This document shows positions 1 through 64,000 of a stretch of DNA of 64,000 nucleotides, piece after piece. The translations under genes were made by a program, and so were the position numbers. Where the stretch lies: NCBI GenBank assembly GCA_030522415.1, contig CM060114.1, positions 26,249,304-26,313,303 on the forward strand, given 5' to 3'. How positions within the stretch are numbered: position 1 is the first letter of the stretch; each line of letters starts with the position of its first letter. The DNA comes from Channallabes apus. Lineage: Eukaryota > Chordata > Actinopteri > Siluriformes > Clariidae. A model generated the notes under the pieces. That model worked only from the letters and a program-made list of their open reading frames with translations, was not told the origin of the DNA and searched no databases.

Positions 1-579
1 TTTTTTAAATCCAAACCTTTCACATCCTACTGTAGAACCATGAAATTCATTATCTAAAAAAAAATTGAAAGAATTTGCCACAACTGTGACTCTGTCTATG
101 TGAAAGGAGCATTATGGAGACACTGGACTACACCTACCAATCACCATTGCCCTTGATAACATATCCTAATGTATTTTGTTTGCCTAATGATATTTATTTA
201 TGAGACTGCGCTTGCATCCACGCCTTCTGCTTTGTGACAGATTGCTCGCCCTCCAAATAAATGCAGCAGGAAGGCACAAAGAACCATGGGTTCTGCTACA
301 AGGTTTCTTAAATAAACATCAAAGTGCTAGGATATACTGTACGTGCCAGCGTTTTGCATGATACAGATTTTCCCTAGTGCTGGTTCCCTTTTTAAAAGAA
401 GGGTTTTCCCCATGATCCAGTATGAGCCTTCGTTTCACAAATTTGGGGGAAGGCTATAGCCAGTGTGTCAGCCCAGAGCTGCACAGCACAAGTGTGAGGG
501 TCAACAGAAAGGCCCTACCAAGAAGGTTACACCAGGGTCCTGAGGAGCCTCCACTGCAAAGCTTAGGTAGAGGTCAGAG
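1..579. other. Unassigned upstream DNA
   Basis: AT-rich flank with no ORF of recognisable family and no clear repeat family. Positions 422-610 are less AT-rich but have no motif I can place. One TACTGTA heptamer sits at 28-34 and another near 334. Confidence 0.5.
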
Positions 580-825
580 AGGCGACCTCTGTAGCCCAAC
601 TAAGTGGAGGTTAATGAGATCAGGCACTGATGTTGGTTGAGGAGGCATGGTATGTGATCTATTGTCCAGTTAATTCCAAAGATAAATGGGCTGAAATTAG
701 GGTCCTGTGCAGGATACTCAAGTTCTTCTACAGCAACCTTGGTAGGCCATGTCTTCATGGATATGGTTTTGCACACAGGGGTATTGCTATACAGGTTTAG
801 TCCTCTTCGTTTCAATGAAAGGAAA
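580..825 (-). mobile_element. Tc1-like transposase remnant (DDE part)
   Basis: Read on the minus strand this translates to a degraded DDE transposase segment: a stretch resembling NLFQHDNAPVHKA, then SMKTWPTKVAVEELEYPAQ, then a decayed PDLNPIEHLW region, ending in HQCLISL. It matches a fish Tc1/mariner family whose ends begin ACTATATGGCCAAA. Another piece of that family with its terminal sequence is at 30958-31330. The second Asp and the Glu are lost here, so it is a fossil. The family is recognised from memory of fish repeats. Confidence 0.7.
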
Positions 826-1427
826 TTGTAATACTACAACATAAAAATATATTTTATAAGGAATAGAGATTGGGGGGTGGGGGGGGGGTGGAATCCATTT
901 AGATATGTATCTTCATGATTTTGTGTGGTGCCACAGTGACTCAGCATACAAATCAGCATACAGGAGCAAATTATTTGCTGAGGTTGTTTACAATTGTAAC
1001 AATATAAAAAAAACAATACTTACAGAATCACAATAAAAATTTAATTGCAACAATGTCGTATCGGCCCTCACTGTTATATATTTAATATATGTTACATTTT
1101 TATTTATATTTTAATAGAGCAGATGAGACAAGTTAATTCCTGTTAATGTTTATGTTGCTTCATCAGCAGTCTCTTTAAAAAATATTTCCTTTGTTAAAAA
1201 AAAGCCATCTTGTCATTTTATTGAGAAAACAGACTCCTGAATGACCTGTGAAGATTTACAAGGAACTGTCCCTGTACCAAAGTGCTGACATCAGTGCAAC
1301 TTTCTAAAACTACAATAACAACTAAAACAACTTAAAAAAAAAAAAAAAAAGAGACCACAAAAACTATTATATGGTGTTTTATATTATTCAGAGCATACAA
1401 CATACACACAAATCCCTGTGTATGATT
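826..1427. other. Unassigned AT-rich DNA
   Basis: No gene seen. It contains a short G tract (about 871-890) and an A tract (about 1333-1350). Confidence 0.45.
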
Positions 1428-1700
1428 ACTCACTCACTTATCACTTACTTGATCTGTATACAGGGTCGCTGAGGCCCGGAGCCAGGAGACGCAGGGCATG
1501 AGGGGGGTACACCCTGAACGGGGTGCCAATTCATCACAGGGCACACACACGATGCAATCAGCCTAACCTGCATGTCTTTGGGAGGAAACCCACCAAGGAC
1601 GGGAACAACATACCAACTCCTTGCACACAGACCTGAGGCGGGAATCGAACTCGGAACCTGGAAACACAAGGCGACAATGCCAATGCCTACTCCTTCCATA
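1428..1700 (-). mobile_element. HE1/DANA-like tRNA SINE, degraded
   Basis: The order of blocks is that of the HE1/DANA-like SINE in reverse: 'ACAGGGTCGC', 'GGGGTACACCCTG', 'GTGCCAATTCATC', 'AACCTGCATGTCTTTGG', 'GGAGGAAACCCACCAA', 'GGGAATCGAACTCGG', then the tRNA-like head at the right. Several small deletions separate it from the fresher copies at 19315 and 62784. Confidence 0.8.
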
Positions 1701-1805
1701 CCTGTAACTTAAAATGTCTCATCACAACAACTTCTTGAAATAAAAAAATAAACAACCACAAAAACTATTGTACAGTATGTCTTAGACTATTCAGAGCATC
1801 CAACC

Positions 1806-1842
1806 TAAGAATGTATGAGTTAAATAAATAAATAAATAAATG
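1806..1842. repeat. (AAAT)n microsatellite
   Basis: Tandem TAAA units, about eight. Confidence 0.85.
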
Positions 1843-1924
1843 GAAACAATGTTAGAATGAGTGCATGAATTAAAACTGCTGTTATATAAAATTAACACAC
1901 CTTCTGACCAATCGTGCTCGAGGA

Positions 1925-1990
1925 TTGAACACACACACACACACATGGAACGTGTGAACAAGTGTGTTTGCATCTGTCAGTAGAGGAAAT

Positions 1991-2026
<36 letters not shown>

Positions 2027-2077
2027 GGAGGAGTGAAAAAGTGATAGAGACAGAACGAGAGAGACAGAGAGTGAGGA

Positions 2078-2138
<61 letters not shown>

Positions 2139-2251
2139 ACACTGTGTTTGTGCGCAGCAGTGGGGAAAGTCTGAGCGATAGAGACTCAGAGAGAGAGACG
2201 CAGATGAAGCCGATGATCTGGTGAGTGTGTGCGTGTGTGTGTGTGTGTGTG
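1925..2251. repeat. Compound CA / GA / GT / GA / GT microsatellite cluster
   Basis: Successive tracts: CA (1930-1945), GA (about 1996-2030), GT (about 2080-2102), GA (2102-2137) and GT (about 2226-2251). They lie directly upstream of the CpG-rich putative first exon of trhde. Purine-rich GA tracts near promoters can be structurally unusual, but a regulatory role here is only inference. The long Ser/Leu/His/Thr reading frames across this block come from the repeats and are not genes. Confidence 0.9.
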
Positions 2252-2488
2252 CAGCGGGATGCAGCATCGCGTGCGCTGATGCGGAATCCAGTCGTGAGCG
2301 GGGGCGCGCGCTGATCACAGAAACGCACGGTGCCGTTTATTATTTTTTTATTATTTGTTTTTTTTTGTTGTTGTTATTTTCCCGCCCCGCGAATGTGAGC
2401 GGTACAGAGCGCGCGCCGGGGACGAGGATTCCGGAGCTACAGCAGAGAGCGCGAGCTGGAAGCGATGCTGCGTTAAGTTAAAGCGCTG
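2252..2488 (+). promoter_or_regulatory. trhde: Putative CpG-rich promoter / non-coding first exon of trhde
   Basis: GC and CpG content rise sharply (CGCG and GCGCGC words at 2268-2312 and 2384-2420) in an otherwise AT-rich region. The block ends in a perfect 5' splice site, CGCTG|GTAAGA, with GT at 2489-2490. A matching acceptor (CTTCTTTGCAG) ends at 6506, 15 bases before the trhde ATG. I infer a spliced 5' UTR with the transcription start in or just upstream of this block; the exact start cannot be read. A second CpG-rich patch with a TATA-like CTATAAGG near 2690 is an alternative promoter. Confidence 0.5.
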
Positions 2489-2567
2489 GTAAGAATCTCA
2501 ATCAGACTGCGGTCTTACTGTATCGATGACTTTATCAGCCAAGTGTATGTGTGTGTGGTTTCTTTTC

Positions 2568-2593
2568 ATAATAATAATAATAATAATAATAAT
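2568..2593. repeat. (TAA)n microsatellite
   Basis: About eight ATA units just inside the inferred first intron. Confidence 0.85.
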
Positions 2594-3332
2594 GATAAAA
2601 CTTTGCTAAGCAGATCTAATTCCCCGGGTCGATATACTGTAAGGCATAATCTCTGGTAAGGCAACTTGGTTCAAGCGCGCAACCTCCTGCTATAAGGCGC
2701 GATCCGTCCTCCCTCCTCACACACTGTCGCTCACTGTAGTCCTGTGCACGGTACACTTCACCCCAGGCAGACTGGAACAGAAATGCGCACGCCGGCTAAA
2801 AATAGACACGTGTAACAAAATCTAAAGAGCCTGTTTGATGTTGCGCTTTGAGACGCTTTTTGATATTCATGTTAAAAAAATTTTTTTAATTCGAACTTGT
2901 AACAGAAATCGTTACAAAGTTATTCTATAGTACGTAACGGATCACCCTGATCCTATAATAAAACACTTCTGTCCTGATGGGAGTGGTGAGTGGTACTGTA
3001 TGATAGAATGTGGATCGTCATCCCCAAGACACGGGGACTAAACCGTTTTACGAATATAAAAATAACAGACTAGATATACTGTAAATCATACAGTATGTTA
3101 TGGCTTAGAGACTCACAGGATCTCATGCGCGTGGGACTGATGTGTTTAAGCTTTCCATTAGGCTCATCATAAAAACACCGATCCGTTTAGGATATACAGT
3201 AGATGGCTCATCCTTCTACTTCCAGAGACTTGTAGGATCTGTGCCAAGGCTGTTAGAAGCTGTTCAGTCGGCTTTCAGATTCGAGGAAAATTCAGTGCGA
3301 GCCATGCACAACAGTCACAAAGCTAATAAACT

Positions 3333-3335
3333 ATT

Positions 3336-3374
<39 letters not shown>
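3333..3374. repeat. (ATA)n microsatellite
   Basis: More than ten ATA units ending in ATTAAT. Confidence 0.85.
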
Positions 3375-3427
3375 TAATATGTTTCCTATGTAAGTATACA
3401 GTATGCAACCGGCTGGAATTAAGATTT

Positions 3428-3668
3428 TATTTTTTGTCACATGTACCTTAAAGTAAAGTGAAATATTTTTTTCCACATAACCCAGTTAGGAAACTTGGGT
3501 CAGAGCTCAGGGTCAGCCAGGATACAGCATCCCTGGAGCAGATAGGGTTAACAGCCTTGCTCATCGGGCTCAACAGTGGCAACTTGGCGGTGCTGGGACT
3601 CAAGCTCCTGATCAGTAAACCAGTAATCCACAGCCTAAATAGATTGAGCCACCATTACCTTTATTTAT
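3428..3668 (-). mobile_element. tRNA-derived SINE, family B
   Basis: The reverse complement reads GGTGGCTCA (A box), a degenerate B box with AGCACCGCCAAGTTGCCACT, then TTGAGCCC..GAGCAAGGC, TTAACCCTATCTGCTCCAGG, CTGGCTGACCCTG and TTTCCTAACTGGG. This is the same block order as the better copy at 44608-44883. It is an inactive old copy. Confidence 0.8.
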
Positions 3669-3835
3669 GACTGATTACCAAGCAGAAAATAATTCAAAAA
3701 TAAAAAGATTGGAAACTTTTAAAAAATATATTTTTACGGCATCTGGCAGACCTCCAGTTTGTTTTGTACTGTATGTGTTGGGAATGAGGACTCTTGACTG
3801 CAAATCAATTTTACCTTTGGTGCAAATAAAGGAAC

Positions 3836-3962
3836 TTGAACTTGAACTTATCCAGGGCGACTTGCTCAGGCACCCAACACAACTTTGTGGTGCTGGGGTT
3901 TGAACCTGGGATCTTCCAGTTAGTAGTACAATGCCTGAACCATTGAGCTACACCTGTCCATT
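3836..3962 (-). mobile_element. tRNA-derived SINE, family C fragment
   Basis: The reverse complement begins GGTGTAGCTCAATGGTTCAG (A box) and contains CCCAGGTTCAAACCCC (B box), a short linker, GAGCAAGTCGCCCTGGATAAG, and then ends. The tRNA head plus a CGCTCTGGATAAG tail is typical of fish SINEs that borrow a LINE 3' end. A relative is at 22485-22665. Confidence 0.75.
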
Positions 3963-3992
3963 GTTTTATTAAACATGCTTGTTGTTATATAA

Positions 3993-4310
3993 ACTTGCAT
4001 GGTGGCACAGTGGCGTAGTGGTTAGCACTGTTGCCTTGTCCGTGTGCATGGAGTTTGCATGCTCTCCCTGTGCTTGGTGGGTTTACTCCGGGTATTTAGG
4101 TTTCTTCCCACAGCCCAAAGGCTAATTGGCATTCTCAAATTGCCCATAGTGTGTGAATGAGCATGTGTATGTGCGTGTGTGTGTGTGTGTATGTGTGTGC
4201 CCTGTGATGGATTGGCACCCTGTCCAGTCTGTACCACGCCAGATGCCCAAAGTCTCCTGGGATAGGCTCCAGGCTCCCGCATGCTGTATATAGGATAAAA
4301 CGTTATAGAT
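3993..4310 (+). mobile_element. HE1/DANA-like SINE
   Basis: Starts GGTGGCACAGTGGCGTAGTGG (tRNA-like A box). It continues through GCATGGAGTTTGCATGCTCTC, TTGGTGGGTTTACTCCGGG, a GT tract, GATGGATTGGCACCCTGTCC and GGATAGGCTCCAGG, and ends GATAAAACGTTATAGATGATG. The B-box half of the head is deleted. Confidence 0.85.
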
Positions 4311-4388
4311 GATGAGATGATCTATTTATAACTAATTACAAGACAGACATTAATTACACGAAAACAGCCAACGACATTGGGGGAGAGG

Positions 4389-4394
<6 letters not shown>

Positions 4395-4454
<60 letters not shown>
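4395..4454. repeat. (TA)n microsatellite
   Basis: About 30 uninterrupted TA units. Confidence 0.95.
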
Positions 4455-4458
<4 letters not shown>

Positions 4459-5029
4459 ATATATTATTAAATATTGATACACTTTTTTTTTGTTATTTTA
4501 ATATATTTGCATTGCATATGCTGACTTCATGTTTGCATGCATAATGAATCATATAAAGGTAACTGACATGCAAAAGTATTTAGGCACTATATTAAAAAAT
4601 GCCATAAAAAAATCATACTTCCAGATATATATGCTGTAAATATTACATCTTGTGCCATTTAAAAAGGCATGATAAAGCAGAAGGAACTTCCTTATGAGTT
4701 TAGGCAGAAGGATATTAAATAACATTTAAATAATAATAAAAACCCTACAGAGCCAAAGCAAAGACTTTAAACATCCCTGTCAGGACAATTGTTTAGATAT
4801 AGAAAGTACCTGGAACCATGACTTATTGTCTCCAAACAAGTGCACCATGGACATTTTTACCATAGGCTCTCAGACTAAATATGTACTGTATCAGGTAAGA
4901 GAGCAGTGAACACAAAGAGTTGCAGAACGATCTGAAAGCAGCAGAAATGACAGCTATGCAGGAAACAGCAGGTGTTTGTCTAGACAAAACAAAATAATAA
5001 CAGTTATTCAGTTTTAGGTTTCCAAACAT

Positions 5030-5460
5030 ACAGTACTGTGCAAAAGTCTTGAGCCACCCCTAATTTCTTTTCATTTAATTAATTTACTATCAAATAGTAT
5101 TGTAATAAAGTAAAGAAACAGGAACAAATGTTTTACTGTTAAAGGCTTTAAAGTGCCTAAAGATTCAATAAAATTTTTTACATGTAACAACCTCAGCAGC
5201 AACCTTATTTCCCCTCTTGTCTGTTCTAACCACTCAGCATTCAGCATTGCCAGCCTGATAATCTGCATCTTTTTCTCACCGGTTTATGCCTTAAATTAGA
5301 TGTTTTTATGCATGAATGATTTATACCTTAGGTCACAAAACCTTCCTCTGAAACTGGTGAGGTACAGGGACTGAACTCAGAATAATAAACTAAACCAAAA
5401 AGTCCTCCACGAAGGCTGGAAAAATCTTACTATTAGTGGCTCTTTAAAAGCTATATATTA
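5030..5460 (+). repeat. Dispersed repeat (copy 1 of a pair with 63190-63605)
   Basis: Shares a long colinear block with 63190-63605, including GTAACAACCTCAGCAGCAAC, TTTCCCCTCTTGTCTGTTC, AACCACTCAGCATTCAGCAT and GAGGTACAGGGACTG. The left edge carries CAGTACTGTGCAAAAGTCTT, which reappears reverse-complemented near 11820-11840. That suggests a DNA-transposon end. No ORF. The family is not identified; I suspect a non-autonomous DNA element. Confidence 0.65.
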
Positions 5461-5474
5461 TATTAAAAATACTT

Positions 5475-5690
5475 GGGGCAGTGGTAGCTCAGAGGGCTAA
5501 GGCACTGAGTTACTGATCGGAAGATCAGCGGTTCAATCCCCAGCTCCACCAGGTTGGGCTCTTGAGCGAGGCCCCTAACCCTATATGCTCCAGAGGTGCT
5601 GTATCATGGCTGACCCCAGTTATACTGGAATATGCAAAGAAGGAATTGCACTGTGCTGTGATGAAAAAAGGCTTAACTTAACTTAAAAAA
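5475..5690 (+). mobile_element. tRNA-derived SINE, family B
   Basis: GGCAGTGGTAGCTCAGAGGG (A box), CGGTTCAATCCCC (B box), then GCTCTTGAGCGAGGCCCCTA, GCTCCAGAGGTGCTGTATCA, TGGCTGACCCCAG and ATTGCACTGTGCTGTGATG. Its short tail differs from the copy at 44608. Confidence 0.85.
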
Positions 5691-6171
5691 TAGTAAGAAA
5701 GCACTTTTTTCCCTCTCATGTAATAGTGACATAATTTTTAAAGAAAGCAGCAGGCTGAAAATCAGCAACATTTAAAATGTCATCCAGATAAACTATTTAG
5801 CCCAACTCTATGGGTTGTTAACATAATGTAATAATTAAACAAAGAACTCATAAAATCTGCCAAAAATGTATGTTATATTTTTGTGTAATTCATTATGTTT
5901 ATATACGTAACCTTAAAGATGAATGTAAATGAATAAAAAGTTAAAAATGTATAAATGATAAGAAATGCAAGAACACATAAAAAGTAAGATGTAAATTGCA
6001 TTTTACTGTCTTTTAAGATTATTTATCTTAGTTATTCATAATAAATTTTTTTTTTATGAATTTGGAAAATTGAAGTAAAAATACAGCTTAGGACAAAATC
6101 TTAATATGTAGCACATCTTACATAGTCTACTTCCATTCTTTGTTCATTACATAGAAAACTGATTATCCTTA

Positions 6172-6173
6172 TA

Positions 6174-6238
<65 letters not shown>

Positions 6239-6240
6239 TT
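6172..6240. repeat. Compound (TTA)n-(GTA)n microsatellite
   Basis: About ten TTA/TTAT units switch to about ten AGT units. It lies about 270 bp upstream of coding exon 1. Confidence 0.9.
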
Positions 6241-6521
6241 ATATGTTAGTGGATTTGATTAAGTTTTTAATTTTATTTTAATAGTGTTATTGAAATTTTA
6301 TTCATGTCTTGAATAAGTATGCAACAATGATTTTTGAAAATGTGTCATTGCAGATAAAAGTAAGGCAATTAATGTTGTCCCAAAGTACCAAACCTGCCAT
6401 CATAATTTATCAAACATTTCATTAAAAATGTTTTTTAGTCAGTCCTCTCACATGATGTTTCCCATGAGCTGGTGCAGACAAACAGTTGTCCTCCACTTCT
6501 TTGCAGTGACTTCAAGTGTCA

Positions 6522-7192
6522 ATGGGGATTGAGGACCTGAGCATGAGGAATGGCCGGGCATTGTCTGACCAGTGGGCTGACGATGTGGTGGTGCGCCCCC
6601 GAACCACTGAACAGCACATCACTGTGCACAAGAGACTTGTGCTTGCCTTTGCCATCTCCATTCTCACCCTCATTGTGGTGACAGCCATTGCTGTGATGCT
6701 GGGTGTCCGCTTTGAGAAATGCAACAGTGGCAGTGAGAGAGTTGTTCTACCTGGTCCGGCATCGAATCAGTCGCGGGAAGGAAATTCTGAGCACAAAGGG
6801 GAAGATTTGCAGCCATGGCGGCATTCACGCTTGCCAACCACTCTACGCCCACGCCACTATGACCTACAGCTCTCTGTGTACATGGACAATTATACCTTCG
6901 CTGGCAAGGTAAGCATCGAGTTTGAGTGTGTGAACGCCACCAAGTTCATCGTGCTACACGCGGACAAGCTGGACGTGGATAAGGTGGCTGTGTACTCAGA
7001 TAGTAAGAAGCCTGGAGCGATGAGGATCCACCGGCACTTCCATTACGCTGCCAACCAGGTCTATGTCATCACTCTGCATCGAGAAATGAAGCCTCTCAGA
7101 ACATACAAGATCAACATCACATTTGAAGCTCAAATAGAAAACGAACTGTTGGGCTTTTTCCGCAGCTCGTACATGCTGCACGGAGAGAAAAG
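6522..7192 (+). CDS. trhde: trhde coding exon 1: cytoplasmic tail, membrane anchor, start of ectodomain
   Basis: The start is ATG at 6522 (GTGTCAATGG); an in-frame GTG six bases earlier is not a eukaryotic start. Residues 1-38 are cytoplasmic, with the family-typical WADDVVVRPRTTEQHITVHK at about 18-37. Residues about 39-62 (RLVLAFAISILTLIVVTAIA onward) are a single signal-anchor helix. After it come a low-complexity stalk and the first beta-rich M1 domain (LRPRHYDLQLSVYMDNYTF). Potential N-glycosylation sites are NQS, NYT, NAT and NIT. The exon ends ..FFRSSYMLHGEK plus AG, with donor GTAATA at 7193. The short stalk relative to mammals is a visible difference. A 15-base 5' UTR precedes the ATG after the TTTGCAG acceptor. 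Confidence 0.95.
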
Positions 7193-7624
7193 GTAATAAG
7201 ACAAGTACAGTTTTATCCATAGTACAGTATGTGTCCAGCTAGGCTTGCATATAGTGTTAAAAATGTTCCAGAATATAATTTGGAATATAATCAGAATTTT
7301 AGTGGTTGTAAGATGATGAGAGTATACATTATATTACTGTAACTTGTGTTGAATTAATACAGCTTTGAACAATCACAGGCTGAACAGGTTCAATTTAATG
7401 TAAAGTATTTTAAATGAGCTCTTACAGAATCTTACACTGTATATACAGAGTAAGCCAAAAAAATTGTATACACAGTTCAACATGAAAAATATACACCCTT
7501 CTTCTGACGATCACATGACAGCATCAATGAAGGTGCGACTACTGACATCTTCACAGGAAACATAATACTACACATTGCTGCCATAATTGAATTTGAGGTT
7601 TATAAAAGGGCACATATACATATA

Positions 7625-7935
7625 TATTGGTCAGGGTGGGTGGCTCGCCAACAGCATTGGTGGGTTTGAATATCTGGTTGATGTGCATGGAGTGTGCATG
7701 TTCTCCTGTACATTGTTAGTTTCTTCCAGGTACTCTTGTTTCCCACAGACTTCCCCAGACATTTTAAGATGAGTTGGAGGATGATTGTTCCCATATGGCG
7801 TGAAGTGTATGATTTGGTGTGGGAATGTATTTGAGCTTGTCTTGGCACATTATCCAGGGTGTACCCAGATTACACTGGGATAGACTCCAGGTTTCCTGTG
7901 ACCCTACACTGAATAAGTGGTATGAAGAATGAATG
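7625..7935 (+). mobile_element. HE1/DANA-like SINE, heavily degraded
   Basis: Recognisable blocks: GCATGGAGTGTGCATGTTCTC, CAGGTACTC, TTTCCCACAGAC, ATTATCCAGGGTGTACCCAG, GGGATAGACTCCAGGTTTCC and a terminal GTGGTATGAAGAATGAATGG. The head is eroded. This is an old copy. Confidence 0.7.
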
Positions 7936-8366
7936 GATAAAAGTCTTTATTTCCAAAGTAAAATATATTAAAACTAAAACAAAAACAAAAAAAAAACTGA
8001 AATATTAGAATCACTATTGGAAAAGCAGAATCAAGGATCAAATGACTCAATTCTGGTTTGATTGGATGCTGACAAATCTCTGTTATTTCCTAATTTTAAC
8101 CTACAGTATTTGCTATAATTCTACTGTAATCAAAGTATTAAAACTCAATGGAAGCTTCTATACAGTAAGTATACAGTATGTGATAAAACCTTTAACTGGT
8201 TAAACTGGTTTATGTTGAAAATATGCACAATACTTGGTAATGTAGTTTAATACTGTGAAATGTAATCAATCACCAAGGCCCAGAATCGCAGAATATTTTG
8301 CTTACAAAAATATGTACAGTAAATTATTTACAGGGTCTATGCAGAATTCTATGCAGAATGTTTTTG

Positions 8367-8369
<3 letters not shown>

Positions 8370-8428
<59 letters not shown>
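8370..8428. repeat. (TA)n microsatellite
   Basis: About 29 TA units abutting the left end of a Tc1/mariner-type element. The insertion may have used this TA-rich target, or the tract may have grown from it. Confidence 0.95.

Positions 8429-8430
<2 letters not shown>

Positions 8431-8432
<2 letters not shown>

Positions 8433-51303: not shown

Positions 51304-51304
<1 letters not shown>

Positions 51305-51374: not shown

Positions 51375-51375
<1 letters not shown>

Positions 51376-53720: not shown

Positions 53721-53723
<3 letters not shown>

Positions 53724-53752
<29 letters not shown>
53724..53752. repeat. (AT)n microsatellite
   Basis: About 14 AT units next to a family D SINE end. Confidence 0.9.
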
Positions 53753-53753
<1 letters not shown>

Positions 53754-53761
53754 CTTTTTCC

Positions 53762-54135: not shown

Positions 54136-56010
54136 CAAATAAAGAGAGTTTCTAATCTCATAACTGTGTTCTATTCTTCTGAAATCAAAAGTCCCAGTTC
54201 GACTTGAACTGCCCTTGTTGAATAAAAGGCAGTATGGACAATAGATATGAATAGGTGAACCAAAACAGGCAGGTCCTAAGCATCAAGAAAGTAGCTACTA
54301 CTACTTCTGCACAATCGTTCACCAACTCCACTTGCATGTTAAAGGAACCCGGGTGTAAATTATTGGGCCTGATCTCGCTCCAAGCCATTTCCCTTTGCTT
54401 GGACCATTAAAGGAGTTCTTGGGAGGCCAGCATTCCGGTTGTGAAGCAGAAAGTCTGATCATGGCAATGGTGAGAAAACTTTCTACCTTGGTGGTATCCA
54501 AGCACTAGTGAAACATTAGGATAAGTACTGTACATTAGTGTAGCAGGGGATTATATAGGGAGAACTAAAGGGAGTTTTTACTCTCATAACTGTTCTGTTA
54601 CTCTGGAATCAAAACCTCTGTTTGACTTGAACGCCCCTTGTGGAATAAACTACTGTACAGAATAAAGACGCGATAAGATTAGATCAACCTAGACAGACAC
54701 ATCAGTGAATAGAAATCAAATTTCTATAGAAAACCTTTTTTTTTTCTTTTTTTTTACAGGGTTTGCTATGAGGATTGCTGTAGCAAAGGGTTAAAGTCTT
54801 TCTATTTACAACTCACACACATGTTGCAAAGCAGTAATCACTGACCTAAGTGGTTACACAATGATTTCTAGTGTGATTGCATCCTGTCTGACACCATTGG
54901 TTTGCAGGATGCTCCTCGGTTGTCATTTACCTTTCGTCCATGTCTCTAACAAGACTATTTCATTAAGGTTACACTATTGATTTATTGCCTAAAGGCTTGT
55001 CTTTTTCAGTCTTGTCAAAAAGGACAAAGCCTCTTAACCAGCCGATTGCGTTTTTTATCTTTGATTTGTAAGCGGGTAATTTTTAGGTCAACATTTTCAC
55101 AAAAGTCAAGTATAAAGTTAAACCTGACACGTTACTTTACATGACACGTTGACATGTTGCTTTATGTTTTCATCAAGCAGATATTCCATTTTATCTCTGT
55201 AGGTAATTATTTTGCTATTTCTTCAAGTGGATACACACCACTTTCGCATTCTTCTGCATCAACATTCAAGATTAACACCTTTCATTTACTATGAAAGACC
55301 AACAGTGGCAGTGGAATCTAAATGCATGCTTCACCAACCATTACATTATCGAAATGAAAAGATAAGCCAAATGAACCAATGTGTACTGTATAAGCTCGCA
55401 TTTATTGGCCATGTATGTTAACACACACAAGGAATTTGATTGTAAAGACTTGATTCAATTGCAGACAAGTTCAACACATAAGCCAAACATTTGGCTTTTT
55501 AAAGGGTCTATGGCATTTTTTTTTTGTTTTTTTCCTAATCATAGTTCAATAATAGGACTTGTTCAACCACAAGAGAAGTAAAAGCCATCATATGTTGATT
55601 GTGTTTAAATGGCTCTTCAGAGTAAGACTGCTTTTGTAATATGATCATTTTGCATGTTGGATGAATTCAGGAGTGAGAGTTTTGTTCTTGTGTGAATTGA
55701 GTCCTTGAAAGGGAAATGATGTGGATGTAATGCTTGCCTCACTTATGTAAAGGCACCATCTGTGTACCGGGGAAGGCAGCAGTTGCAGGGCCTAAGGTCT
55801 CTGATGGCAGGACGCTGTCTTTCTGCTCATCCACAAATAAGTTGGATAAAAAAGTGACAAGGAATAAAATCAAATTATTGAATTGTTTCCATTATAGCAT
55901 GCAACCAAAGTCTTTACAAGGCACAAGTAGGTTATGATTGATAAAATATATAAATGCACAGTATCGTCCTTTTGCCTGGATGTCACTGTAGTGTATAAAA
56001 CATTGAGTTT
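54136..56010 (+). other. Unassigned intron 3 DNA
   Basis: No gene or repeat family recognised. The phrases GTCCCAGTTCGACTTGAACTG (54190) and CTCTGTTTGACTTGAACGCCC (54610) also occur near 10730 (AAAGTCCCGGTTTCACTTGAACGCCCC), so a low-copy dispersed repeat passes through here. Confidence 0.5.
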
Positions 56011-56012
56011 TC

Positions 56013-56215
56013 TCAGTATGCCGGGGCCGTGATCAGGACTGCTTCATGTCTGAAACACTGGCCTCTCAGGAACTCCTTTAATAACCCAATCATGGGGAAA
56101 TGGCTTGGAGTGAGGTCCAGACTGTTTAGGGGATGTAGCAATGATGTTGGTGAATGATTGTGTGTACAGTTCCCACGGACTGATGTGTCTCCTGGATCAG
56201 GCGTTCCACTCACTG
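56013..56215 (-). mobile_element. mariner-type transposase remnant
   Basis: The frame includes HSPTSLLHPLNSLDLTPSHF PMIGLLKEFLRGQCF, which aligns with the HPPYSPDLAPSDFHLF..LKEFLRGQRF end of mariner transposases. Key Asp positions are partly altered. Confidence 0.75.
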
Positions 56216-57044
56216 AATGTTAACGGAAACGACTGCAGTGGGATCTGAGCCCCCTCAGGCAGGATCGTCATTCTCACATACGGCTTACTTTACAACGTCT
56301 GGCCCATTCGAATGTTTTACTGCAGCTCAGAGTCTCATCACCGCACTCTGCTTAAAGGATTCTGTAAATGTCAATCAGTTTTATGCCTCCATTCACCAGT
56401 AATTCCATCACAAGTCCTGGGTTGACTTGAATACCTTTTTTACATTTGCGGTCCATTTGATTCATACCGGAGCTCAGAAACATAGGAACGGGATGTTGCG
56501 GACATACAGTAACCACACAAAGCAAGCACGACAGCTTCCAGGGCCACAGTCCATAACAAAAGCACTTGTGAACAAATGACAGCTTGTGCTGAATGAACTG
56601 TCATATATTCAGGAGCATTTAGCGAGTGCTCTCGTTATTGACAGCAGCCTCGTTTTTTGTACACGAAGTGATTGCACATCTCTTGAGTTGAATTTCAAAA
56701 ATATTATATGAAGTGCACCTAACCCTGTTTTTAACTCTTTTTTTTGCTTTTTAATTGTTTGGTACAGTATGTTGCGGGTGTTTAGTATTTGTTCATTTTT
56801 ATTGACTTGGAGGACTATTGTATAAAAGTGTTTCTTGACAAAACACTTTTAGTAGTACTGTAGGTAGTGAGTAGTATTTTGCCTGATAGGAGGGTTACTA
56901 GCATTCGACACTTTAACCTCTATGGTGTGGGTTTGATTCCCAGTCAGGAACAACCTAGCATTGGCAGTAAGAGTGTATAAGGACATATTTCACAGTTTCA
57001 GTTGAGAACTGTAAATAAAATGTTGTTTTGAAGTAGTATTGGCA

Positions 57045-57325
57045 ATATTATGGCGGCACGGTGGCGTTGCAGTCCAGGGTCCCGGTTTAATTCCCGCCTT
57101 AGAGTCTGTGTACGTGAAGTTTGCTGTGCTTGGGTGGGCTTTCTCCATGTACTCTGGTTTCCTCCCACAGTTCAAAGACGTGCATTCCCAAATTGCCTGC
57201 AGTGTGTGAATGTTTACCAGAGGTCCTACTACGGCTGTAAAAAATGGGAATAGATACAATGGTCACCATTGACCTCCATAGTCCCGAGTTGGACTACAGA
57301 GGTTCCCAGATGAATAGATGGATGG
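57045..57325 (+). mobile_element. SINE A' (alternative tail)
   Basis: TGGCGGCACGGTGGCGTTGCAG (A box), GGTTTAATTCCCGCC (B box), TGAAGTTTGCTGTGCTTGGG, TTTCCTCCCACAGTTCAAAG, GAATGTTTACCAGAGGTCCT ACTACGG, GGGAATAGATACAATGG and a terminal GATGAATAGATGGATGGAT. It ends in GGAT units rather than GAAT units. Confidence 0.82.
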
Positions 57326-58407
57326 ATTGGCGGTAGTGTGTTGGAGTCATTTGTTCAGTGTTATCCCAAGGTCATAAAGTCAGCGTTGGTCCAACATCAT
57401 TTTATTAAAGTAATTTTCACACCAACAGTGTCATGACATCTGTGACATTGCCACTTCATCATTGTCAGAATGATTTGACAATGAAGAATTACAGCTGGGG
57501 TTGTTTATGGTCGCCCGTAGATAATGAAAAGGTAGCTACCTCATTGGCTACATTATAATTTGAACCCATTGATTTACATTCATTTACGGTATCAATAACT
57601 GAAGAGAAATCTAGTATCTGTGTTTTTATTTAATGAGAGATTTCTATAGCTCACATTTTTCATACTCATAGCCCCAGCACTGACATGGTGGTGTGACCCA
57701 TCATTTTGAACGATAGAGTGGAAGTGCTGTTTGATGCTCTTTAGACACCTCTCCTGATCTACAGATGGCAGAACATAACATGCCATTAAAGGAAAGATGA
57801 AAAGCCAGAACGAATCAAAAGAGTTCAGGACTTTTATTCTTCTCACCTGTCAGCTATGACTGGTTTGACACCTTATGTTAACACTTGGCTCATACCCTCT
57901 GAGAGCAGCAGGGTGTCTCTCTCACTGTCTGATGTGCAAATGTCAGTTAGCCATCTAAAACCCAATTAGGCATTTAATTACTGCCAATTTGTCAAATGAA
58001 AGCTCAATGAAGAAACTGACACTCTGGGGAGTAATGATGCTAAAACTAGCAAATGAGCAATATACATTACGGTGGTTGCCCTTAAATCCCAAAGCCTTTT
58101 TAGCCATTTTTCTTTTGCAGTACTAAGTTTCAATAAATACTTATATAGGGATCAGGATTTTGCAATATATAGAATGCAATCCTAGTATATGCATTCAAGG
58201 CGATGTGCTGAAATGAATTTTAATTCATTTTAACCAACTACACAACCATGACTTATCAAAAATTTTAAATGGGTTACGTAGGCAAAGAAAGAGCACAAAT
58301 ACATATGATCACTTGTTTTATGGTTGTTTTCAGTTGTTTTTATGTGCAAAAATTATTTGGTAAATCTGACATTTTTGCAACGTCATAGCCATATTCCAGT
58401 CTCACTC

Positions 58408-58772
58408 ACTGATCGTCTATACCGCTTTATCCTTTATTCAGGGTCGTGGGGGGGCTGAAATCTATCCCAGGAGACATAGGGCATGAGGCGGGTACACCCT
58501 GGACGGGGTGCCAATCCATCGCAGGGCACACACACACACACACACTCACACACACACACACACACACACCCTCACATACTCATTCACACACTCATTCACA
58601 CACTATAGGCAATTTGGGAATGGCAATTACGGCCAACTTGGATGTTAGAGGAAACCAGGGTACCTGGAGGAAACCCACCAAGCACGTGAGGAACATGCAA
58701 CACAGAGGCAGGAATCGGACCCAGACCCTGGAGGTGCAAGGCGACATTGCTATACACCACTGTGCTGCCTAC
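58408..58772 (-). mobile_element. HE1/DANA-like SINE
   Basis: CACTCACTGATCGTCTATACC GCTTTATCC, GGGCATGAGGCGGGTACACC, a CA tract (58526-58570), GAGGAAACCCACCAAGCACG, GGAATCGGACCCAGACCCTG and a reversed head ACCACTGTGCTGCC. Confidence 0.88.
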
Positions 58773-60475
58773 CCAGTAAAATCTAATACTTTTTTTCTTG
58801 GTTAATTATCAATCCTGTGTTGCTGGCATGTATCTGTGCCACTTGTGTTTTAAGGATTTAAATAATCTTACACTTTCCTTGCATCTGGCTGCATTGGGCA
58901 GCTTTTTTGTAGTGTGCCCAAGGTCTTGTGGTATCCCAGCCAAGATCCCAGAGCAAGGCTTGGCTACTTAGAAATATCTAAATAATCTCAGTTGAAATTT
59001 TAAAATAACATCAAATAGTGGAATAAAAACTTTCCAAAAGTGAATTCCAGGCCATAACTATACTGCTAATAGTTAACATCACATAGTGCCAACAAGATTC
59101 CAGACACTGTTAAAGAGAAAATGAATGAAATGAAATGCCCATGCAGAACAAGCCAAGTCCACTACAGTGCATAAACACATCGGAGACAGAACCTGATGTA
59201 CTGTATATCGTCATGTTAATCCATTTGTCAGTAACCCGCCAACCAGTCTACACAAAACTGAGTTTGATTAAGTCAGCCACACAGGAAGACAGCCAGTTAC
59301 AGCTGGTTTGACTGATCATAAAGCAAGGCTTGCCAGCCTGTCAAGCTAATTGACTTTTTCCCTGTAGAAAGCCTTTCTTTCAAACTGTGAGGGACTGATC
59401 ACATTAGTAAACGGAGTCTTTGTACTCAATACCGGGAGGACAGATGTCCTTGTGTGTCCACAACAAGGCTCAATGCTTAGTAAATTATAGGCACCAGACT
59501 TTATAGTAAATCTAACCCATGTGCTGAAGCCATGCAAGTTCTTCCTAGTGAAGAAACAGAAATCTACAGTACTAATGCATAGGCACCAATTACCTTGTAA
59601 TATCTCATATAACTCATGTTACCTAAAAATGCTCCTTGCCATCTTTTAAACCAAAGCAGGCCACTGACAATCCGAAGGCACCATTTGTGAGATAATGTAG
59701 CATAACCCATTTAGATCATTGGAGTTGCACTTACAAAAACAGCACAGTCCACTCCTTGTGTCTTTGTTCTACTGTGCTGTAAGATCAGTCTAGCAGAACA
59801 ACTGAATGGAATATCTGCAACACGTCACAAATGCTGAGAAATTCTCAAGTCTAAAATGACCAAAAAGGACATTTGTCAAAAAAATATACAAGGCAGCTAA
59901 ACAGCAAAAAGCATTCAAGATCCTGGTCAAATTGGATGGGGAGAAATTATGGCATGCTCCCGCATCAGTTATGAGTGGGCGTATGCAGTAATTGACCTCA
60001 AGCTGACCATTTCAGGACACAGGGAAAGAGGCGATATTATATCCCATTCCGCTGCCACTGAAGCATGGACTCATGAGTACTCAAAATATACCAAAAGATT
60101 ACACTGCACCTAAAGCAATTCCACTAACACACCAAACCTTCAAAAGAATTCAAAGGCACCAGGGGTAGTAAATTGTGCAGGCCTACAATAAAATTTAACA
60201 TATTGTTATTATGCATCAATCAGGCATAACAATAACACCACTGCCAGGTAGATTGAAAAATATTGATCATCAATGCACACCACACCACCCAGAGGCCCTG
60301 CAGAGCCACGCCCCGATGGAACCTATAGTTAAGTTAAAATATAAAACAAAATGAATATACATTTTCCCCCATTGTTTTATGTTATTGTTTCTAGCTCTTT
60401 AAATTTGCTGGATTAAAAGATGGAAAGCAGAGGAATGGAGGTTAGCTGCAGCATGATTTAATACATCCACCTCTG
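58773..60475 (+). other. Unassigned intron 3 DNA
   Basis: No gene or repeat family recognised. Confidence 0.45.
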
Positions 60476-60477
60476 GA

Positions 60478-61110
60478 TCAAAGTAGAACAGTGAGGCTAC
60501 AGGGAGCCGAGGTAAAGTAGGTGCAGGATTTTAAGTACTTAGGGTCAATGGTCCAGAGCAATGGAGAGTGTGGAAAGGAGGTAAAGCGGCGTGTACAGGA
60601 AGGTTGGAACGGGTGGAGAAAAGTATCAGGTGTGTTGTATGATAAAAGGGTATCAATGAAAATGAAAAGAAAGGAGCTCAAGACAGTGGTGAGACCAGAA
60701 ATGCTCTATGGCTTAAAGACGGTGTGGCACTGAAGAAAAGACAGAAGGCAGAGCTAGAGGTAGCAGAACAGAAGATGGAGGTTCTCTTTGGGAGTGACCG
60801 GAATGAATAGGATCAAGAATGAGTCCATCAGAGGGATAACGCATATTAGATGTTTTGGAGATAAAGGCCAGATTGAGGTGGTTTGGAGAGATTGAGAGTA
60901 TATTGGCAGAAGTGCTGAGGTTGGAACTGCCAGGCAGGAGGTCTAGAGGAAGACCAAAGAGGAGATTTATGGATGTAGTGAAAGAGGACATGAAGTTAGT
61001 TGGTGTGAGAGAAAAGCATGCAGAGGATTGCGTTAGATGGAGGTAGATGATTTGCTCTGGTGACCCCTGAAAGGGAACAGCCGAAAGCCAAAAAGAAAGT
61101 AGAGATTTAA
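60478..61110 (+). mobile_element. LINE 3' end (RTE-like reverse transcriptase C-terminus)
   Basis: In two frames the + strand reads VQDFKYLGSMVQSNGECGKE, VKRRVQEGWNGWRKVSGVLY and LKTVVRPEMLYGLKTVW, then after breaks IKARLRWFGEIESI, GRRSRGRPKRRFMDVVKEDM and EDCVRWR. This is the conserved region after the catalytic palm of non-LTR reverse transcriptases, near the RTE-type. It ends TGACCCCTGAAAGGGAACAG CCGAAAGCC, the typical 3' tail. It is 5'-truncated and frame-broken, therefore dead. Confidence 0.85.
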
Positions 61111-61303
61111 ATGCTGTCAAAGCCAAATATATTAATTTTTGTTCCAATATTAAGCCACAGTGTTCAATGTACAGTGTCTGATAAATGCCATTTTATGTTA
61201 TATTGTGTGGTGTAGTAGGCCCCATGAGCCTATGAGAGGTATTATGATATTAAGTAACTGCTTGAAAGTGTAATGCCCAATGATCAGAAAGCATTTGCAT
61301 ATC

Positions 61304-61450
61304 TCCATCCATCCATCCATCCATCCATCCATCTAGGAAACTCTATACTCCAACTAGGGACCATGGAGCCCAGTGGTGACTACCATTGTATCTATCCCCA
61401 TTCTGTGATTGTGGCAGGACCTCCAGTTACTTGCAACTCTGTCCGATGTT
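61304..61450 (-). mobile_element. SINE A' tail fragment with (CATC)n end
   Basis: The reverse complement GGAGGTCCTGCCACAATCAC, ATAGATACAATGGTAGTCAC, CATGGTCCCTAGTTGGAG and CTAGATGGATGGATGGATGG matches the 3' part of 57045-57325. The head is lost. Confidence 0.8.
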
Positions 61451-61748
61451 ACTCAGGTTGAACCATGTTAGACTTGTAGCAAATAACTGAGCCTGAGAAT
61501 GTATTTGCTCTAGTGCTAGGAGTCAGTGTTAGTGTCTGATGAATTAGGCATATCTTTCATAAAAGAAGTGGTCTATACTGGTACATTAACTTACAGAAAG
61601 TGATTTTAAAACGACTAAGAAAGGTATGCATGTTCACATAAGCATGTACTGTAGAAAAGGGGGAAATCAATGGACAGTTAACACTGGGTGACCTCTGGGG
61701 TGCCTTTCCTTATAAAATGGTTTGCTGGAGTATATGGTCTGATGATGG

Positions 61749-61749
61749 T

Positions 61750-61781
<32 letters not shown>
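61749..61781. repeat. (GT)n microsatellite
   Basis: About 16 GT units followed by TTTG units. Confidence 0.9.
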
Positions 61782-61783
<2 letters not shown>

Positions 61784-62062
61784 TTTGTTTGTGTGCGCAC
61801 GCTGCTTCTGATGATTTTGTGTGTAAAATGGGAACTAATTAACACGTTGTCAAAAGTTGATAGTGACAAGCAATAGGCCAAATCATTTCTGATTAGATTT
61901 GGAATGAATGACTTAAATATTTACGGTTTGTATTCTTTTTTTATTCTTTTTTGTTACTTGTGACTCTAATGTGAACTGTTTATTCCAATATTCACCAACG
62001 CTACTACTTCTTGTCGTTTTTTGTCAATACACCCTATTTTTGTTATAACCTGATTTCTGTAG

Positions 62063-62415
62063 GCGGCACGGTGGTGTAGTGGTTAGCACTGTCGCCTTGC
62101 ACCTCCAGGGTCCGGGTTCGATTCCCGGCCAGGCTCGATTCCCGTCTCTGTGTGCATGGAGTTTGCATGTTCTCCCCGTGCTTGGTGGGTTTCCTCCGGG
62201 TACTCCGGTTTCCTCCCACAGTCCAAAGACATGCAGATTAGGCTAATTGGCGTTCCTAAATTGACCATAGTGTGTGAATGTGTGTGTGTGTGTGTGCTCT
62301 GCGATGGATTGGCACGCTGTCCAGGATGTACCCTGCCTCATGCCCTGAGTCTCCTGGGATAGGCTCCAGGTCCCCGCGACCCTAAGTAAAGTGGTATAGA
62401 AAATTAATGAATGAA
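62063..62415 (+). mobile_element. HE1/DANA-like SINE, near-intact, 12-bp target duplication
   Basis: Flanked by TGATTTCTGTAG (62051-62062 and 62416-62427). Intact A box (GGCGGCACGGTGGTGTAGTG), B box (GGGTTCGATTCC) and every middle block; tail AGAAAATTAATGAATGAA. The best reference copy for the family in this window. Confidence 0.95.
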
Positions 62416-62737
62416 TGATTTCTGTAGTTTTATTCTTCTCTGGCAGAATGGGTCAAAACAAGCAATCTAATAGTAAAAGCAATGGACAGTAGACAATGGC
62501 ATGTTCAGTCTTTATCAGTCCATGATACAAAAGGCACTTGCACAAAGTGGAAAGAGATTAATTGCAGTATAAAAGCACCATGGGCCAGTATCTGTCTGAT
62601 AATGGTTAACACCATGCCAGCCTGTGAACCTCTGAGACACTTTATGCATCACACAAGTAAATTGTAGAGCAAATTTCAGACATCTTTCATATAAAGTTTT
62701 GATGCTTAAGAGATCCCCCCCAAAGATGATTAACCTT

Positions 62738-62745
62738 TCCATTAA

Positions 62746-62776
<31 letters not shown>

Positions 62777-62777
62777 A
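62738..62777. repeat. (AAAT)n microsatellite
   Basis: About nine AAAT units immediately left of a SINE; part of it is in the SINE's target duplication. Confidence 0.9.
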
Positions 62778-62783
62778 ATTCAT

Positions 62784-63162
62784 TCATTCATTCATTTTCT
62801 ATACCGCTTAATCCTGTGTTCAGGGTCACGGGGGACCTGGAGCCTATCCCAGGAGACTTCGGGCACTAGGCGGGGTACACCCTGGACAGGGTGCCAATCC
62901 ATCGCAGGGCACACACACATACAGTACACACACTCACACACCCAACCACACACTACGGGCAATTTAGGAATGCCAATTAGCCTAACCTGCATATCTTTGG
63001 ACTGTGGGAGGAAACCGGAGTACCCGGAGGAAACCCACCAAGCACGGGGAGAACATGCAAACTCCATGCACACAGAGATGGGAATCGAGCCTGGCCGGGG
63101 AATCGAACCCAGACCCTGGAGGTGCAAGGCGACAGTGCTAACCACTACACCACCGCGCCGCC
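62784..63162 (-). mobile_element. HE1/DANA-like SINE, near-intact, 12-bp target duplication, one scar
   Basis: Flanked by AATAAAATTCAT (62772-62783 and 63163-63174). Complete head, middle and tail in reverse. Its CA tract contains TACAGTA at 62920-62926. Confidence 0.95.
62920..62926. repeat. TACAGTA excision-type scar in SINE CA tract
   Basis: GGGCACACACACATACAGTA CACACAC here, versus GGGCACACACACATACACAC at 19439. The two copies are identical around it except for the added CAGTA. The cleanest single example. Confidence 0.9.
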
Positions 63163-63189
63163 AATAAAATTCATATTAGCTTAAATTAA

Positions 63190-63605
63190 ACTGTGTAGAT
63201 TAAAGTAAAGAAATGCAACAGATGTTTTACTGTGACAGGCTCCAAAGTGCGTAAAGATACAGTTTAAAAATTGCTTGATTATGTAACAACCTCAGCAGCA
63301 ACCTCATTTCCCCTCTCGTCTGTTCCAACCACTCAGCATTCAGCATCACGGGTATAATAATCACTGGCCTGATCATCTGTCTTCATCTGCACCTGTTTCT
63401 CACTGCTTCATGCCTTAAGTTAGATGATTTTTATGCTTGAATGATTCATAAGTCACTGAAACTGCTCAGGTACAGGGACTGGACAGGAATTGAGGGCAAT
63501 AGAGACCTTCAGGAAGCCTGGAAAACTCTTTCCCAAGACTATAAGAAGGTCTGAAAATAAAAATCTAAGAAAGTCTACCTCTTTAAAAGCAAAATATGAA
63601 GAAAT
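63190..63605 (+). repeat. Dispersed repeat (copy 2 of a pair with 5030-5460)
   Basis: Colinear with the first copy: AAAGTAAAGAAATGCAACAG, GTAACAACCTCAGCAGCAAC, CCCCTCTCGTCTGTTCCAAC, CACTCAGCATTCAGCAT and CAGGTACAGGGACTGGACAG, with different indels. Not assigned to a family. Confidence 0.7.
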
Positions 63606-64000
63606 GAGGAAATTCAAACACTGTCTTTACTGTTCTGCTTTTAGCTGTTATTTCTCATTATCATCCAACTTATTCATATGTTTTATATCATATTGTATAT
63701 CCTTCGCTTCTATTTACACCTACTTATTCTTTGCAACGAGCTTCTAAAAATATTGAAATTTTCCAATACATCTATTTTTATTTGCTCAAATCTGGAAACT
63801 ACTGACAGTCCAGCCCTTGAGATGTCTGAATTGTTTGTCTCTTAGAATCTAACCCATTTTTCAAGGTTTTGAATGTTTTTTTTCTTTCCTCATCCATTTG
63901 CAGCTGTGACAAAGAGGAGATCTAATTCAAGCCCAACCTAAGAGCTGTACCATTGTACCAGCCGTGCAAATTCACCCACTCATTTAGAATCTGCTAATGG
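63606..64000 (+). other. Unassigned intron 3 DNA
   Basis: Nothing recognised up to the window edge. Confidence 0.45.

What the first reader, a model, noticed from the sequence alone, without database searches (positions are those of the whole stretch)
1..64000. TACAGTA/TACTGTA heptamers are strongly over-represented and behave like Tc1/mariner excision scars
Reading through the window I count about 100 copies of TACAGTA or its complement TACTGTA, spread over upstream and intronic DNA. From a rough 62% AT composition I would expect about 13. Tc1/mariner elements insert at TA. When elements whose ends are CAG/CTG leave, the established repair product is TA-CAG-TA or TA-CTG-TA. All complete Tc1 and pogo-like elements here begin CAGTG. 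I infer that most of these heptamers are healed excision sites, about one per 0.6-0.7 kb, far more than the resident elements. A few are native sequence (hAT ends at 27361 and 47950; 35615).
Basis: partly seen in the sequence, partly recalled or inferred. Interest (0 to 1): 0.88.

Follow-up and report, generated by a model that had tools for sequence, protein, structure and literature searches.

The report
Genome littered with transposon excision scars
A seven-letter DNA word that is far too common in this animal genome is mostly the healed cut left where jumping genes once sat and then left, so the genome keeps a countable record of how often such elements moved.

Summary
The window holds 57 TACAGTA and 49 TACTGTA (106) against 10.3 (sd 3.2) in dinucleotide shuffles. 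No other of the 32 TA-NNN-TA classes exceeds 2.3-fold. The window's own assembly (1.16 Gb) holds 979,603 copies, against 260,532 for the word read backwards and 82,780 for TAGACTA. Three tests favour excision scars. (1) Where a repeat sibling exists, 20 of 32 heptamers fit better as a 5-bp insertion at a TA (10 native, 2 ties), against 18 of 223 other TA-NNN-TA words; under stricter filters 11 of 17 against 10 of 139. (2) Flanks carry the symmetric AYA/TRT preference of Tc1 insertion over three bases per side, replicated in a separate 200-kb sample. (3) Thousands of overlapping mixed-orientation double scars exist. Only the 3-base C(A/T)G product, published for Sleeping Beauty and Frog Prince, stands out. 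Not every heptamer is a scar: some are chance, element ends, inherited repeat sequence or satellite. Related species could not be compared. The footprint is known; its bulk accumulation was not seen in the listings of eight paper searches.

The parts
28..62926 (.). The whole set: 106 TACAGTA/TACTGTA heptamers, first at 28, last at 62920; most read as excision scars
   Evidence: Positions; enrichment; flanks
10460..10466 (-). Scar; sibling at 33420-33348 lacks the five bases
   Evidence: dropped by the stricter thresholds
11726..11732 (+). Scar; sibling L026:7809-7957 has the uninterrupted site
12056..12062 (+). Scar inside the left inverted repeat of a Tc1-type element; the element's own right inverted repeat lacks the five bases (it reads CA where the scar side has TA)
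28953..28959 (-). Scar; sibling at 35489-35591 is shorter at this point (net 4 bases, with one further 1-base difference beside it)
38442..38448 (+). Scar in a dispersed repeat; same TA as 39959, so inherited or hit twice; six siblings read TA
   Evidence: dropped by the stricter thresholds
39959..39965 (+). Scar in the same repeat family; siblings at 11849, 14997, 19315, 37023, 58398 and 62783 read TA
40022..40028 (+). Second scar in the same repeat copy; siblings at 11912 and 58466 read TA, others have lost the TA but lack the five bases
54526..54532 (-). Scar; sibling L023:3223-3279 has the plain site
62920..62926 (+). Scar; a 98.8% identical sibling (L022:8998-9159) has the plain TA
33023..33034 (.). 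Double scar TACTGTACAGTA: two scars sharing one TA
   Evidence: genome-wide count of this word
38866..38877 (.). Double scar TACTGTACAGTA
11968..13548 (+). Resident Tc1-type element, TA-CAGTG ends, interrupted transposase frames
   Evidence: Pfam HTH_SB, HTH_Tnp_Tc3_2, DDE_3; frames; ends
15023..16645 (-). Resident Tc1-type element, TA-CAGTGGTGTG ends, interrupted transposase frames; 97.2-98.3% identical to four sampled copies; no heptamer inside
49676..50626 (.).
27360..27366 (+). NOT a scar: native sequence shared with 47950 in two 99% identical repeat copies
35619..35625 (-). NOT a scar: point variant of sequence native to the repeat
42250..42256 (+). Probably native: a sampled sibling fits better uncollapsed
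5029..5035 (+). NOT a scar: start of an element end CAGTACTGTGCAAAAG, shared with 11836, L019:6019 and L026:9460
52899..52946 (.). Two heptamers that are mirror copies in a near-perfect inverted repeat; count as one

Best explanation
Most TACAGTA/TACTGTA heptamers in this genome are healed excision sites of Tc1-type cut-and-paste transposons whose ends are CAG...CTG. The element inserts at a TA and duplicates it. When it leaves, three terminal bases stay behind as 3' overhangs; host end joining pairs the two overhangs around a mismatched centre that is settled either way, giving TA-CAG-TA or TA-CTG-TA about equally. Each round adds 5 bp and leaves two TAs, so the same place can be hit again. 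Shown here: the excess, its restriction to C(A/T)G, the 5-bp insertion state against repeat siblings, the target-site flanks, the double scars, the scarcity in resident element bodies. Inferred: the overhang chemistry (from published Sleeping Beauty-type work), which families did it, and the time span.
For: Enrichment in window, sample and assembly. Empty-site test: 20 insertion, 10 native, 2 ties against 18, 188, 17 for other TA-NNN-TA words; with low-complexity filter and at least 80% sibling identity 11, 6, 0 against 10, 120, 9; alignments. Among 5-bp gaps between repeat copies of the window 4 of 14 places carry the heptamer, against 3 of 139 for gaps of 1-4 and 6-8 bp. Flanks AYA/TRT over exactly three bases per side, score 3.18 against 2.34 in the window and 2.99 against 2.27 in the sample, highest of 31 word classes; AYATATRT is the Tc1 consensus (PMC9635669, passages). 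AYA-TACAGTA-TRT 25,096 against TRT-TACAGTA-AYA 838 in the assembly. Double scars 6,478 and 4,564 against 146 and 169 for the reversed words. CAG:CTG 57:49 in the window. C(A/T)GTA is the tabulated footprint of Sleeping Beauty and Frog Prince (PMC3878927, passages). Resident elements have Sleeping Beauty/Tc3-type HTH domains. Complete elements hold 1 heptamer in 12,034 bp where 12.5 would be expected at outside density.
Against: 10 of 32 testable heptamers are native to their repeat (6 of 17), though a scar older than the repeat's spread would also look native. Several of the 20 insertions rest on weak siblings: L015:7285 and L023:1776 lie in microsatellites, and L014:7427, L019:9310, L023:7250, L028:5673 and window 54651 have siblings under 78% identical. 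Some siblings have lost the TA. Under the reversed-word control the assembly excess is 3.8-fold, not 12-fold, and TAGACTA is itself rarer than its reversed word (226,651). The assembly count includes satellites that contain the word. Part of the AYA/TRT contrast in the assembly comes from TA-rich surroundings. Decayed one-mismatch words do not clearly show the flank signature (p = 0.14). Uniform re-use of TAs predicts about 1,960 doubles of each type, fewer than found. No species comparison was possible.
Confidence: 0.93

Rival explanations
1. The heptamers are the termini of many short inverted-repeat elements (MITEs) whose ends read CAGTA...TACTG.
For: One such end family exists: 5029, 11836, L019:6019, L026:9460 share CAGTACTG-GCAAAAGTC.
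Against: Only 12 of 262 heptamers share flanks with another one. Of 1,044 window pairs one has matching inner flanks, the foldback at 52899/52940. Base preference stops three bases out on both sides. Siblings show a 5-bp insertion, not a longer one.
Confidence: 0.03
2. The excess is made by microsatellite slippage or satellites that contain CAGTA.
For: TACAGTACAGTACAGTA has 973 matches against 75 for the reversed word, and the place lists show some 25- to 29-bp-period arrays with the word.
Against: Masking simple repeats leaves 258 of 262 heptamers in 264 kb. Mixed-orientation doubles, which slippage cannot make, number 6,478 and 4,564. Eight inspected three-unit arrays have eight different flanks.
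Confidence: 0.02
3. The word is a functional motif, such as a protein-binding or microRNA site, kept or spread by selection.
For: TACTGTA pairs with bases 2-7 of miR-101 and miR-144 plus A opposite base 1; the two RNA sequences are in PMC2644714 (passages), the site rule is recalled.
Against: Both orientations are equal (57:49); the copies lie in introns and dispersed repeats; they differ from siblings by a 5-bp insertion, which selection on point changes does not make.
Confidence: 0.02

Closest known systems
Sleeping Beauty and Frog Prince excision footprint C(A/T)GTA (PMC3878927, passages; TACAGTA/TACTGTA also in PMC4378557 and PMC3432063, passages)
   Same: Same letters, both orientations, 5 bp added at a TA, TA target
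   Different: Described there for engineered elements in cells and tumours; here natural, inherited and accumulated to hundreds of thousands of copies
Tc1 of Caenorhabditis elegans (insertion consensus CAYATATRTG / AYATATRT, PMC9635669, passages)
   Same: Same TA target and same AYA/TRT flank preference
   Different: The worm footprint has two bases between the TAs (recalled); TACATA/TATGTA is hardly enriched here (178 against 155)
Passer, a pogo-superfamily element from a fish genome (PMC9976928, passages)
   Same: Fish cut-and-paste element; a pogo-like element with CAGTG ends lies at 49676-50626 (family by recall)
   Different: Its footprints range from 0 to 4 bp, whereas only the 3-base C(A/T)G product stands out here

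Membership tests
Tc1/Sleeping Beauty-type excision footprint | TA-C(A/T)G-TA in both orientations at about equal frequency | tested here: met
   57:49 in the window; 83:73 in the sample. Assembly counts cannot split the two, because the two strands are counted together
Tc1/Sleeping Beauty-type excision footprint | Net gain of 5 bp at a TA relative to the unoccupied site | tested here: met
   20 of 32 testable heptamers, 11 of 17 under stricter filters; alignments. Empty sites are repeat siblings, not orthologues
Tc1/Sleeping Beauty-type excision footprint | Flanks show the Tc1-type target preference | tested here: met
   AYA/TRT
Tc1/Sleeping Beauty-type excision footprint | CAG-ended Tc1-type elements are present in the same genome | tested here: met
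   Window 11968 and 15023 with Pfam HTH_SB and HTH_Tnp_Tc3_2; nine convincing complete CAG-ended elements in 264 kb
Tc1/Sleeping Beauty-type excision footprint | The orthologous site in relatives is a bare TA | not testable with these tools
   No relatives of this genome are held
Tc1/Sleeping Beauty-type excision footprint | The resident transposase leaves this product | not testable with these tools
   Needs an excision assay; both transposase frames in the window are interrupted
C. elegans Tc1-type (2-base) footprint | Excess of TACATA/TATGTA (recalled product) | tested here: not met
   178 against 154.9 in 264 kb, ratio 1.15
MITE termini | Paired inverted ends with shared inner flanks | tested here: not met
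   1 of 1,044 pairs; 12 of 262 share flanks

The most novel reading that the evidence does not exclude
This genome keeps a bulk, countable log of cut-and-paste transposition: roughly 0.7-0.9 million excision scars, at least ten per surviving CAG-ended element, sometimes stacked at one TA. Most transposon activity here would then be invisible to repeat annotation, which sees only elements that are still present. The scars would also be a large source of 5-bp indels and, in transcripts, of ready-made miR-101/miR-144 7-mer sites.
Probability: 0.65. Interest if true: 0.85.

Novelty: new variant of a known kind. Interest (0 to 1): 0.76.

Why it matters
Past transposition rates of cut-and-paste elements are hard to measure in nature, because an element that moved on leaves little behind. 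A scar that can be counted with one seven-letter word, and weighed by its flanks, makes past hop numbers testable in any genome invaded by CAG-ended Tc1 elements. In the 264 kb studied, the excess of about 224 heptamers (262 found, 38 expected) compares with nine convincing complete elements, so element copy number may understate activity by an order of magnitude. The equal CAG/CTG split also reports on how the germline repairs these breaks. The 5-bp scars are possible lineage markers, with the caution that re-use of the same TA does occur.

Tried and rejected
Element-end (MITE) reading: rejected as main cause by flank sharing and pairing. Satellite or slippage reading: rejected as main cause. 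Functional motif: rejected as the cause of the excess. Dating by one-mismatch neighbours: an excess exists (904 against 741.8), but the baseline is rough and the flank test of decayed words was inconclusive, so no age is claimed. Other spacings between two TAs (1, 2, 4-7 bases): in the masked 264 kb the other top-ranked words are AT-rich words, words that contain the heptamer, and a few words not followed up, some with strong ratios on few copies (TAACCACTA 16 against 2.4, TACTTAAGTA 9 against 0.4, TAAGCGGTATA 6 against 0.1). Looking for other fish DNA in viral contigs and genome contigs: no match in viral contigs for two patterns, two matches in bacterial MAG records for one pattern in genome contigs, not followed. 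The count of TACAGTACAGTA in the assembly was wanted, but the machine was busy. Rows dropped: L003-L010 were fetched for a triple scar and served only as database; L001-L002 were left out. Sites with TATATATA nearby were left out, sites with TATATA nearby. The thresholds removed 10460, 13571 and 38442 from the nine window insertions; the larger database added 11726 and 54526 as insertions and 42250 as native. reran with a low-complexity filter. Of 11 structural elements, L020:9275 and window 3523 are unconvincing and were left out of the count of nine.
Full report
Observation. The window holds 57 TACAGTA and 49 TACTGTA, 106 in all. Base composition predicts 12.6, a first-order Markov model 10.2, and 300 dinucleotide-preserving shuffles give 10.3 with sd 3.2 and maximum 20. 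Among heptamer classes with at least 15 copies only three dinucleotide-repeat words have a higher z-score. Among the 32 strand-symmetric classes TA-NNN-TA the next most enriched, TAAAATA, is at 2.2-fold. Among 360 CpG-free classes of the same composition the other 359 average 10.7, and the next four are shifted copies of the same word. The two orientations are balanced (57:49, p = 0.50).

Not local. The window's own assembly became searchable (1,164,683,209 bases in 93 contigs; window at C11:26249304-26313303). The word and its complement occur 979,603 times; the word read backwards 260,532 times; the same-composition word TAGACTA 82,780 times, although the latter is itself rarer than its own reversed form, 226,651. 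Scaling the Markov expectation of a 200-kb sample to the assembly gives about 161,000. The excess is therefore 0.7-0.9 million, depending on the control. The sample itself (20 stretches of 10 kb at places I chose) has 156 against 27.7 expected. The assembly count includes some satellites that carry the word.

Empty-site test. For each heptamer I compared its flanks with repeat siblings, once as they stand and once with the seven bases collapsed to TA. Within the window 13 heptamers could be tested: 9 fit better as an insertion, 3 as native, 1 tie; other TA-NNN-TA words gave 6, 35 and 4 (Fisher p = 2e-4). With the sample and the eight triple-scar loci added to the database, at stricter thresholds, 32 heptamers were testable: 20 insertion, 10 native, 2 ties; other words 18, 188 and 17 (Fisher p = 8e-12). 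With a low-complexity filter and at least 80% sibling identity: 11, 6, 0 against 10, 120, 9 (p = 2e-7). In one dispersed repeat two copies (38442, 39959) carry the scar at one TA while six siblings read TA. A Tc1-type element carries a scar in its left inverted repeat (12056) while its own right repeat lacks those five bases. A 98.8% identical sibling of 62920 has a bare TA. At 40022 some siblings have lost the TA but still lack the five bases. Among 5-bp gaps between repeat copies of the window, 4 of 14 places carry the heptamer, against 3 of 139 for gaps of 1-4 and 6-8 bp (p = 0.001).

Flanks. Oriented on TACAGTA, the three bases on either side prefer A-Y-A before and T-R-T after, symmetric, with chi-square above 11 at each of these six positions and below 9 at the 44 positions further out (counts). 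This is the Tc1 target consensus AYATATRT (PMC9635669, passages). The match score is 3.18 against 2.34 for other TA-NNN-TA words in the window (p = 8e-10) and 2.99 against 2.27 in the separate sample (p = 4e-11); it is the highest of 31 classes with at least ten sites. In the assembly AYA-TACAGTA-TRT occurs 25,096 times and TRT-TACAGTA-AYA 838 times; part of that contrast comes from TA-rich surroundings. An element end would show a long conserved stretch on one side. Only 12 of 262 heptamers share flanks with another, and 1 of 1,044 window pairs looks like two element ends.

Re-use of sites. Each scar offers two TAs. The window has two overlapping pairs TACTGTACAGTA (33023, 38866). The assembly has 6,478 of these and 4,564 TACAGTACTGTA, against 146 and 169 for the reversed words. 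Mixed orientation excludes slippage. Uniform re-use of TAs predicts about 1,960 of each, so re-use is two to three times more frequent, as expected if some TAs are preferred (inference). Three-unit runs give 973 matches against 75 for the reversed word; the eight inspected have different flanks.

Who did it. Two resident Tc1-type elements in the window match Pfam HTH_SB and HTH_Tnp_Tc3_2, one also DDE_3; their transposase frames are interrupted. Nine convincing complete elements with TA-CAG...CTG-TA ends were found in 264 kb, against about 224 heptamers above expectation: about 25 scars per complete element. In the assembly the excess of TACAGTG over its reversed word is about 140,000; if all of that were ends of CAGTG elements it would make at most about 70,000 two-ended elements, or at least ten scars each, a rough bound. 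One family (CAGTGGTGTG ends, about 1.6 kb) has five copies in the 264 kb that are 96.4-98.3% identical. The nine complete elements contain 1 heptamer in 12,034 bp where 12.5 would be expected at outside density (p = 5e-5), so the word is not part of element bodies, and DNA inserted recently has not yet collected scars (inference).

Mechanism. Published work tabulates C(A/T)GTA as the footprint of Sleeping Beauty and Frog Prince and describes 2- or 3-base 3' overhangs repaired by the host (PMC3878927, passages). TACAGTA and TACTGTA primers are used to detect Sleeping Beauty remobilisation (PMC4378557; PMC3432063; passages). The equal split follows if the two CAG overhangs pair around an A:A mismatch settled either way (recalled and inferred). 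The two-base product TACATA/TATGTA is hardly enriched (178 against 155), which argues against worm-type Tc1 cutting (recalled product), and the narrow product argues against the 0-4 bp range of Passer (PMC9976928, passages) as the main source.

Limits. No relatives are held, so the cross-species test is open. Single sites cannot be called with certainty: about 10 of the 106 are expected by chance, and at least 27360, 47950, 35619 and probably 42250 (native), 5029 and 11836 (element ends) and one of 52899/52940 (mirror copy) should be set aside. Neither coding stretch tested (6510-7196, 20694-21083) holds a heptamer, but about one kilobase is too little to show depletion. No age is claimed.

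Novelty. Ten paper searches were made, of which eight concerned scars or footprints. In the titles and abstract starts listed, natural C(A/T)GTA scars counted across a genome did not appear; some searches listed 20 of 104, 20 of 43, 20 of 133 and 15 of 31 papers. The channel catfish repeat paper speaks loosely of transposon footprints and does not contain the heptamers in its main text (PMC5953449, passages); the four-teleost survey contains neither 'footprint' nor 'excision' (PMC4746887). The library lacks most subscription journals, so this is not proof of absence. The footprint is known; as a bulk, countable component of a natural genome I rate it a new variant of a known kind.

Noticed in passing
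6510-7196 and 20694-21083: Two exons of an M1-family aminopeptidase (Peptidase_M1_N), by recall like TRHDE; much of the window would be its introns. No heptamer lies in these two stretches.
   Followed up: partly
52870-52975: Near-perfect inverted repeat: 52-nt arms, 98% complementary, 2 nt apart, with a heptamer in each arm.
   Followed up: no
19640, 37365, 62079, 63141: A second recurrent 5-bp difference between repeat copies (ATCAC/ACCAC, or GTGGT on the other strand) beside TA; TAACCACTA is 16 against 2.4 expected in 264 kb. Not explained.
   Followed up: no
62065-62136: tRNA-like match just above the Rfam gathering score (31.4 against 29), in repeat sequence; perhaps a tRNA-derived SINE.
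   Followed up: no
24987-26500: GC-richer stretch with long open frames; the two frames tested have no Pfam match. No heptamer lies between 24161 and 27360; perhaps a younger insertion.
   Followed up: no
L029: CG-rich satellite-like sequence: 105 matches of CGAGCGC/GCGCTCG in this one 10-kb stretch.
   Followed up: no
G000:C1:247718-251841 and C1:1314003-1314131: Arrays with the heptamer at about 25-bp and 29-bp spacing in the place lists: satellites or minisatellites that carry the word.
   Followed up: no
window plus L011-L030: The palindrome TACTTAAGTA occurs 9 times against 0.4 expected.
   Followed up: no
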